From Natrarchaeobius oligotrophus (GTDB taxonomy: Archaea; Halobacteriota; Halobacteria; Halobacteriales; Natrialbaceae), in NCBI RefSeq assembly GCF_003841465.1, contig NZ_REFZ01000013.1, positions 1-64,000 of the forward strand: 64,000 nucleotides of DNA. The letters are read 5' to 3'. Positions 37,295 to 43,620 of the stretch are shown here, piece by piece. How positions within the stretch are numbered: the stretch's first letter is position 1; the number at the start of each line of letters is the position of its first letter. The notes under the pieces were generated by a model. The model worked only from the letters and a program-made list of their open reading frames with translations. It ran no database searches and had not been told where the DNA came from. A program made the translations under genes and the position numbers.

Positions 37295-37369
37295 GGGTTG
37301 GTGATCTAGTCTGGTTATGATACCTCCTTCACACGGAGGAAGTCGGCAGTTCAAATCTGCCCCAACCCA
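37295..37369 (+). tRNA. tRNA-Val(CAC)
   Basis: 75 bases. Acceptor GGGTTGG pairs with CCAACCC and is followed by discriminator A. The anticodon stem CCTCC/GGAGG encloses the loop TTCACAC with anticodon CAC, and the T-arm is GGCAG-TTCAAAT-CTGCC. Valine by anticodon. Its 3' end is duplicated downstream (37480-37502), as at integration sites. Confidence 0.95.
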
Positions 37370-37502
37370 TTTTTGACGACACAACGACGACGAGCGTAGC
37401 GAGGAGTCCGTGTCGTCAAAAATGGTCGGCAGTTTGAACTAGACGAGTCGCGCGCAGCGCAGCGAGCACGTCTCGGCGTAGTTCAAATCTGCCCCAACCC
37501 AT
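37348..37502. repeat. tRNA-Val 3'-end direct repeat with nested inverted repeats (att-like)
   Basis: The tRNA-Val 3' end (37348-37370, including TTCAAATCTGCCCCAACCC) is repeated exactly at 37480-37502, 23 bp in all. Between them are a 16-bp inverted repeat (CATTTTTGACGACAC near 37369-37383, mirrored at about 37410-37424) and, at about 37428-37442, a mirrored copy of part of the tRNA end (GGCAGTTTGAACTA) that could pair with the second repeat. Duplicated tRNA 3' ends are classic att sites of archaeal integrases; no integrase gene is seen here. Confidence 0.75.
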
Positions 37503-37689
37503 CAACTTACTGCTACAATCCGTGTGAGTGGTTTCTCCGCGCTCATCGGCTCTAACCAGTGAGTCGGAGTCTGCACCCCGTCTGGATGGACAACCAATTC
37601 AACAAGGATCTTGTCGGCCCCCGTGTAGTGTCACGATCTCGCGTAAAGGAATGCGCACGGAAATGATAAAATACTCCTCTTATCAAGCG
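37503..37689. other. Island left edge, no gene seen
   Basis: This directly follows the second tRNA-Val end. I see no convincing frame. The composition drops toward AT compared with the preceding core genes, fitting the start of acquired sequence. Confidence 0.4.
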
Positions 37690-38035
37690 GATTAGGGCGC
37701 TACAACCTCGCGCTTCAGCGCGGGGATACAGCGCCCGCACGTGGTTTTGAGAGGTTCTATGGCGTACCGAATGCCAACCGAGGCGGTCTACCCGCCTACT
37801 GAGACAATATCGGGATTCGCCCCTTCATCGTGGAAGGCACCCCTCCCATGTGGTGAACGGGGTGCAGGAAGCACAAGATAACCCCGAATTCCCATCTCTC
37901 GACGGTTGATAGGGGTAACGGTAGCGTGGAACTGCCAGCATTCCCTCGAGGATGTGAAACCGTAACTCTCCCAAACCAGCAAGCCTTCGCTTGTGGGAAG
38001 CTTCGCCGTTTACGGCGGAGCGGATGTCGCTCACA
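37690..38035 (+). mobile_element. Transposase-less IS605/IS1341-type element
   Basis: The left-end hairpin at 37696-37735 has outer arms GGCGCT/AGCGCC and inner arms CTCGCGC/GCGCGGG. The right-end hairpin at 38001-38020 (CTTCGCCG-TTTA-CGGCGGAG) is followed by CGGATGTC. The 260 bases between hold several more hairpins (GCACCCC/GGGGTGC, CAAGC/GCTTG) and only stop-broken frames. This is the layout of IS200/IS605-family ends and TnpB-associated RNA, without tnpA or tnpB. A second right end occurs at 43588. Known: haloarchaeal IS1341-type genes have 3' non-coding RNAs. Inference: this is a non-autonomous derivative. Confidence 0.55.
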
Positions 38036-38219
38036 CTCTCGTGATTACTATTCGTGACAAATCGACTCAGTCTCCGACAACCAATAGTCGTTGTTTGCAC
38101 CGATGCGCATACGAGGACTCGAATAAATCGTTAGCAGCTTCGTATTTGTCTTGCAGCCCCTATGAACGGGTGCAAGCAGGCCCGACAGCTTTCACCGTAC
38201 TCGCCATACTATCCGCTGG

Positions 38220-43574: not shown

Positions 43575-43620
43575 TTGTGATATCCCCTCCGCCGTAAACG
43601 GCGAAGCTTCCCAGCGAACA
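43575..43620 (-). mobile_element. IS605/IS1341-type right end, solo
   Basis: On the minus strand, GGGAAGCTTCGCCGTTTACG, then GCGGAGGGGATATC, matches the right end at 37997-38028 apart from two or three bases, hairpin included. It is followed by ACAAAT-five bases-ATTTGT, a small palindrome. The upstream flank is the truncated gene at 43619-44442, so the element probably replaced that gene's 3' part. Confidence 0.55.

What the first reader, a model, noticed from the sequence alone, without database searches (positions are those of the whole stretch)
37690..38035. Transposase-free IS605/IS1341-like element with both end hairpins and structured interior
Left- and right-end hairpins are intact, the interior is rich in stems and lacks an open frame. 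The right-end segment is nearly identical to a second solo end at 43588. TnpB-associated guide RNAs lie at such right ends, so this could be an orphan guide-RNA-like locus mobilised in trans.
Basis: partly seen in the sequence, partly recalled or inferred. Interest (0 to 1): 0.6.

Follow-up and report, generated by a model that had tools for sequence, protein, structure and literature searches.

The report
Mobile non-coding guide-RNA-like element
A decayed copy of a widespread salt-loving-archaea "jumping" DNA element that has no gene but carries its own promoter and a conserved structured RNA derived from the guide RNA of the TnpB nuclease, suggesting a gene-less parasite that may borrow both a transposase and an RNA-guided nuclease from its hosts.

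Summary
Window 37684-38030 (347 bp; target TTAT at 37680-37683) is a gene-less IS200/IS605-type element with hairpins at both ends. Copies 87-89% identical sit at unrelated sites in other genera; empty sites show insertion after TTAT without target duplication. A covariance model of its 255-nt interior matched 292 of 392 haloarchaeal genomes (weaker hits are tnpB-linked omegaRNAs), more than 150 times at E<1e-40; 78 of 81 loci examined have no tnpB within 1.5 kb. Copies within one genome reach 100% identity. The 3' part is homologous to the sot0042 omegaRNA of haloarchaeal TnpB. The 5' domain is not tnpB-derived. Divergent members share a TATA box about 30 bp upstream of it, and the structure shows strong compensatory change. 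The orphan guide-RNA idea is supported as anatomy; transcription and TnpB guidance are inferred, not shown. The window copy looks dead: mutated TATA box and right-end terminus, no TnpA found in its genome, related tnpBs interrupted. Closest known kind: PATEs (Haloquadratum, 2011). New variant: a PATE that is a promoter-bearing, tnpB-free omegaRNA gene. A full-length copy lies unannotated on Halobacterium salinarum pNRC200, so the idea can be tested in existing RNA data.

The parts
37680..37683 (+). target tetranucleotide TTAT (insertion occurs 3' of it; would be the TAM of the guide)
   Evidence: empty sites of relatives L065/G108 and L059/G119, G017 read TTAT|flank
37684..38030 (+). whole element (PATE-like), 347 bp, starts CAAGCGGATTAGGGCGC, ends GATGTCGC (other copies GATGTCAC)
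   Evidence: alignment of copies with unrelated flanks, empty sites
37695..37736 (+). left-end palindrome: GGGCGCT/AGCGCCC clamp around CCTCGCGC-TTCA-GCGCGGGG
   Evidence: same design in the left ends of the tnpB elements L019/L021 of this genome, also after TTAT
37745..37750 (+). position of the family TATA box; TTTTGA here, TTTTAA in closest relatives (degraded)
37776..38030 (+). putative non-coding RNA, 255 nt (covariance model R1, 254.5 bits)
37776..37872 (+). conserved 5' RNA domain without tnpB homology: CCGA 37778-37781 pairs with TCGG 37810-37813 and encloses the hairpin GGCGG..CCGCC
37873..38030 (+). omegaRNA core, homologous to the 3' end of sot0042-type tnpB plus its omegaRNA (Rfam RF02656 match 37876-38021)
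38001..38020 (+). right-end hairpin CTTCGCCG-TTTA-CGGCGGAG; covaries in relatives
38031..38050 (+). sequence that would be the guide (flank after the right end), TCACACTCTCGTGATTACTA; differs between copies
43577..43613 (-). solo right end (TGGGAAGC...GATATCAC), no omega core upstream

Best explanation
37684-38030 is a decayed copy of a family of non-autonomous IS200/IS605 elements (PATE-like). They have lost tnpA and tnpB but keep the two end palindromes and an RNA gene. A promoter just inside the left end (TATA box at about -30) is inferred to drive a ~255-nt RNA: a family-specific 5' domain followed by an omegaRNA core of the sot0042 TnpB lineage that runs to the right end, so the transcript's 3' extension is the flanking DNA at each insertion. 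Shown by sequence: family, boundaries, insertion after TTAT (other subfamily TTAC) with no target duplication, mobility, absence of tnpB, shared ends and omegaRNA core with tnpB elements, RNA covariation, positioned promoter motif. Inferred: TnpA supplied in trans moves the element. The RNA loads into a TnpB made elsewhere and directs cuts at TTAT/TTAC-plus-flank, i.e. the empty site, favouring retention and homing of the element. The window copy itself is most likely no longer active.
For: Copies in five other genera, 78-89% identical (most end to end) with unrelated flanks. Empty sites joined at TTAT. Copies 96-100% identical within one genome in four of five genomes compared, identity stopping at both ends. 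78 of 81 loci lack TnpB similarity within 1.5 kb, and one exception is an element inserted in a tnpB gene. Bimodal model score: tnpB-free loci fetched 148-289 bits; tnpB-linked omegaRNAs in the window's genome 70-76 bits; in six multi-copy genomes the scores split into >=117 and <=102 bits. Covariation: 158 double-change cells against 45.7 in shuffles, in seven of nine helices, the other two being nearly invariant. TTTWA at -40..-25 in 18 of 27 upstream-divergent members against 1.1 expected, sharply at -31/-30. Core aligns with the tnpB 3' coding end of L024. Same TTAT target and left-end design as the tnpB elements L019/L021; the L048-type subfamily shares the TTAC left end and TCAA right end with L024. 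22 of 24 host genomes carry TnpA and 22 of 24 carry sot0042-type TnpB.
Against: No transcript data for this family. The sot0042 match is below Rfam's cut-off. G085 has two full copies but no L019-like TnpB at E<=1e-40, and G090 has neither that TnpB nor TnpA. The window's own genome has no TnpA hit (draft, 69 contigs), and its three sot0042-type tnpBs are interrupted by a 55-nt insert. Conserved structure near the right end could partly reflect TnpA ssDNA recognition, not RNA function. TnpA and TnpB are common in haloarchaea, so co-occurrence is weak evidence.
Confidence: 0.7

Rival explanations
1. Plain non-autonomous PATE: only the end palindromes matter for TnpA; the interior is leftover 3' end of a tnpB element and the RNA has no function.
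For: PATEs derived from IS605-type elements by core loss are known, and HqIRS71 keeps part of a C-terminal tnpB segment (PMC3119063). This window copy is degenerate.
Against: The 5' domain is not tnpB sequence, yet it is conserved order-wide with covariation far from the ends. A positioned TATA box is kept while surrounding sequence diverges below 60%. Simple deletion derivatives would differ in each lineage.
Confidence: 0.2
2. The RNA is a decoy or regulator: it binds TnpB (or regulates tnpB/tnpA mRNA) to limit nuclease or transposition activity, rather than guiding cleavage.
For: Omega/sotRNAs in H. salinarum show expression inverse to tnpB, and decoy roles have been proposed for circular omegaRNAs (PMC12558985). 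The extra 5' domain could change the complex.
Against: The omega core and right end stay contiguous with the insertion flank in the intact copies, as guidance needs; a decoy would not need that.
Confidence: 0.25
3. A tnpB pseudogene remnant that arose by local decay at this site.
For: A tnpB-homologous 3' end is present.
Against: Same end-to-end structure in many genomes at unrelated sites with empty-site controls; the upstream half has no tnpB homology.
Confidence: 0.03

Closest known systems
PATEs, palindrome-associated transposable elements (Haloquadratum walsbyi, PMC3119063), in particular HqIRS71
   Same: No terminal inverted repeats, near-terminal palindromes related to IS605-type elements, no target duplication, too short for a transposase; HqIRS71 also resembles an extended tnpB 3' segment.
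   Different: Described as non-coding mobile repeats. I found no description of an own promoter, a family-specific 5' RNA domain, covariation, or an omegaRNA identity in the papers I could search.
sot0042 / omegaRNA of haloarchaeal TnpB (Rfam RF02656)
   Same: Same core helices and right-end hairpin, guide position directly after the element end.
   Different: sot0042 RNA overlaps and is processed from tnpB; here there is no tnpB, the 5' part is replaced by a new domain with a promoter motif, and the Rfam score is below cut-off.
PATE on Halorubrum virus HRTV-DL1 (PMC10544981)
   Same: Gene-less element with IS1341-type right end, reported as strongly transcribed over about 300 bp.
   Different: Carries the omega-like 3' end of another TnpB lineage (no R1 match). 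The authors report reads antisense to ORF3, whereas the right end and omega-like segment lie on the ORF3 strand in the record, so the direction needs checking.
MITEs
   Same: Short, gene-less, mobilised in trans.
   Different: MITEs have inverted terminal repeats and often target duplications; neither is present here.

Membership tests
PATE | near-terminal palindromes, no terminal inverted repeats | tested here: met
PATE | no target duplication, fixed short target sequence | tested here: met
   empty sites joined at TTAT (or TTTAC in a second subfamily)
PATE | too short to code for a transposase, no conserved ORF | tested here: met
   347-372 bp, no shared ORF
IS200/IS605 (IS1341) element | carries tnpA and/or tnpB | tested here: not met
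IS200/IS605 (IS1341) element | end palindromes, target and right-end terminus of the group | tested here: met
   TTAT target and left end as in tnpB elements L019/L021; subfamily with TTAC/TCAA as in L024
omegaRNA / sotRNA (RF02656) | covariance model match above gathering score 88 | tested here: not met
   50.8 bits, E 4e-11; best tnpB-free relatives among those scanned 73-76
omegaRNA / sotRNA (RF02656) | conserved secondary structure with compensatory change | tested here: met
omegaRNA / sotRNA (RF02656) | ends at the element's right end so that flank becomes guide | tested here: met
omegaRNA / sotRNA (RF02656) | overlaps the 3' end of tnpB | tested here: not met
omegaRNA / sotRNA (RF02656) | binds TnpB and guides DNA cleavage | not testable with these tools
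   needs biochemistry
MITE | terminal inverted repeats and target duplication | tested here: not met

The most novel reading that the evidence does not exclude
An order-wide class of gene-less transposable elements that encode only a self-transcribed guide RNA. It parasitises TnpA for movement and TnpB for RNA-guided homing into its own empty sites, with a new 5' RNA domain that makes the guide independent of tnpB mRNA processing.
Probability: 0.45. Interest if true: 0.85.

Novelty: new variant of a known kind. Interest (0 to 1): 0.62.

Why it matters
It would show that the guide RNA of a TnpB system can evolve into an independent selfish unit, separated from its nuclease. It would give a function to a class of repeats that is abundant in haloarchaea but unannotated, and it may explain how gene-less IS605 elements persist. 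A full-length copy in the model strain H. salinarum NRC-1 makes it testable at once.

Tried and rejected
Single-sequence RNA folding of the window interior: weak (z -1.6), so not used as proof. TnpB remnant reading for the upstream half: no similarity found. Phage copies: no match for this element in 50,697 phage records; HRTV-DL1 carries a different PATE type. TnpA in the window's genome: none. The paper by Gomes-Filho et al. 2015 could not be read; it is cited by PMC10544981 as showing a PATE active as ncRNA, so part of the idea may be there. An exact genome-collection pattern scan gave many bacterial chance hits; only haloarchaeal ones were checked with the model. Searches for papers describing tnpB-free omegaRNA elements found none in the held library.

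Full report
Observation. The element is real. Both ends fold as described, and the right end recurs inverted at 43579-43613. Aligning the window copy with copies from other genera shows similarity from just after TTAT to ...GATGTC(A/G)C and unrelated sequence beyond. Joining the flanks of such copies and searching related genomes finds the empty sites: L065 in G108 (98%), L059 in G119 and G017 (96, 95%), and for a second subfamily L048 in G091. The element begins with C after TTAT and leaves no duplication. The window element is therefore 37684-38030.

Family. A covariance model (R1) of the interior was searched in 392 genomes of the order. It matched 292 at E<=1e-6, with more than 150 full-length matches below 1e-40. 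In six multi-copy genomes the scores fall into two groups, >=117 bits and <=102 bits. In the window's own genome three tnpB-linked sot0042 loci score 70-76, against 254, 176 and 148 for the tnpB-free copies. Of 81 loci tested with tblastn (some elements fetched twice), 78 have no TnpB similarity within 1.5 kb; one exception is an element sitting inside a tnpB gene (L085) and two have a separate tnpB nearby. The same search detects tnpB at 27% identity at L054-L056, so it is sensitive enough. Four copies in G355 are 99.7-100% identical and differ outside the ends, so the family moves without any gene of its own. Named carriers include Natronorubrum aibiense, Natronococcus, Natronosalvus, Natronobiforma, Halorussus ruber, Natronomonas aquatica, Halorarius, several Halorubrum species and Halobacterium salinarum NRC-1 pNRC200.

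Anatomy of the RNA. Rfam gives sot0042 at 37876-38021 (50.8 bits, E 4e-11, cut-off 88); tnpB-free relatives score up to 73-76. In L024, a tnpB element of the same genome (190.8 bits), this segment is the end of the tnpB frame (...ENIRQKVSPSPAEDRSNGWLAQPS) plus its 3' flank. The upstream 97 nt (37776-37872) are not tnpB sequence but are conserved across the members: CCGA-GGCGG...CCGCC...ACAATATCGG, with a variable stem after it. On 75 sequences 94.9% of cells pair, 19 pairs have changes on both sides, and 158 double-change cells stand against 45.7+-6.1 in shuffles; slid registers stay below 57%. That alignment was fitted to the model and leans towards it, but the independent MAFFT alignment of 15 sequences gives the same (30 against 11.7).

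Promoter. Upstream of the 5' domain, members whose 125 upstream bases are under 60% identical still share TTTWA at -31/-30: 18 of 27, against 1.1 expected and at most 5 in 1000 shuffles, with the strongest information peaks there. Haloarchaeal promoters have a TATA box and BRE (PMC4983044); a start about 25-30 nt downstream (general knowledge of archaeal promoters) would lie at the 5' domain. This step is an inference from sequence.

Partners. The W-type left end and TTAT target match the tnpB elements L019 and L021 in this genome, and the L048-type left end (TTAC|GGAAG..) and TCAA terminus match L024. TnpA is found in 22 of 24 host genomes and sot0042-type TnpB in 22 of 24. G085 lacks that TnpB and G090 lacks both, which weakens a strict requirement. 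The window's genome has no TnpA hit, and its three sot0042-type tnpBs are interrupted by a 55-nt insert. With the TATA box changed to TTTTGA and the terminus to GTCGC, the window copy is probably inert.

Mechanism. Established for other members of the wider family (cited, not tested here): TnpB uses an omegaRNA whose guide is the DNA beyond the right end and cuts next to a short motif (PMC8612924; PMC10278001); that this motif equals the insertion target is general knowledge of the family. Because the elements described here keep omega core, right end and target motif together, the simplest reading is that their RNA guides a borrowed TnpB to the element's own empty site. Shown: anatomy, mobility, conservation. 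Inferred: transcription, TnpB loading, homing. Rivals are a passive PATE (0.2) and a decoy/regulatory RNA (0.25).

Relation to the known. It meets the defining features of PATEs (PMC3119063) and fails those of MITEs and of autonomous IS605 elements. It is not filed as a member of RF02656 because the cut-off and the tnpB overlap are not met, although its core is clearly homologous. PMC10544981 reports a strongly transcribed PATE on HRTV-DL1 and cites Gomes-Filho et al. 2015 for PATE ncRNA activity in H. salinarum; that PATE carries another omega lineage, and the reported direction conflicts with the record. New here, as far as the held library shows, is the order-wide tnpB-free family with own promoter motif, new 5' domain and covarying omega core.

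Noticed in passing
L019, L021, L024 (three tnpB genes of G000); about 20 tnpB genes in other genomes: An identical or near-identical 55-nt frame-breaking insert made of two perfect hairpins (TCGTTCGAGACGGCGAAGCCGTCTCGTGATGCCAATGAGCTTCGCTCATTGAGCA) sits at exactly the same site (CAGTCAAGT^CAGCGAGT) in sot0042-type tnpB genes of many genera, absent from close relatives. Could be a tiny site-specific mobile repeat or an intron.
   Followed up: partly
L112, L114, L116, L130, L131, L140 upstream of the RNA: Similar two-hairpin inserts interrupt the left-end palindromes of these elements, reminiscent of the SMR-A repeats described in Haloquadratum.
   Followed up: no
L085 / L052 (G096 C5 about 499,100-499,470): A copy of the element is inserted cleanly into a tnpB gene of another lineage, after TTTAC.
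   Followed up: partly
L298 (OP630574.1 about 600-1095): The PATE of virus HRTV-DL1 carries the omega-like 3' end of a second TnpB lineage (as in L027, L054-L056), so gene-less omega carriers may have arisen in at least two lineages.
   Followed up: partly
window 37348-37370 and 37480-37502: The 3' end of the tRNA-Val gene is repeated exactly (23 nt) 132 bp downstream, with a 16-bp inverted repeat (37367-37382 / 37410-37425) in between; looks like an old integration scar.
   Followed up: no
L007, L024, L027-L029, L054-L056 right ends: Rfam HgcC (RF00062) gives weak, below-cut-off matches at right ends of IS1341-type elements with and without tnpB; HgcC itself may be an omegaRNA-type RNA.
   Followed up: no
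L297 (NC_002608.1 267,912-268,286): Full-length member of the family on H. salinarum NRC-1 pNRC200, with no annotated gene there (218 bits).
   Followed up: partly
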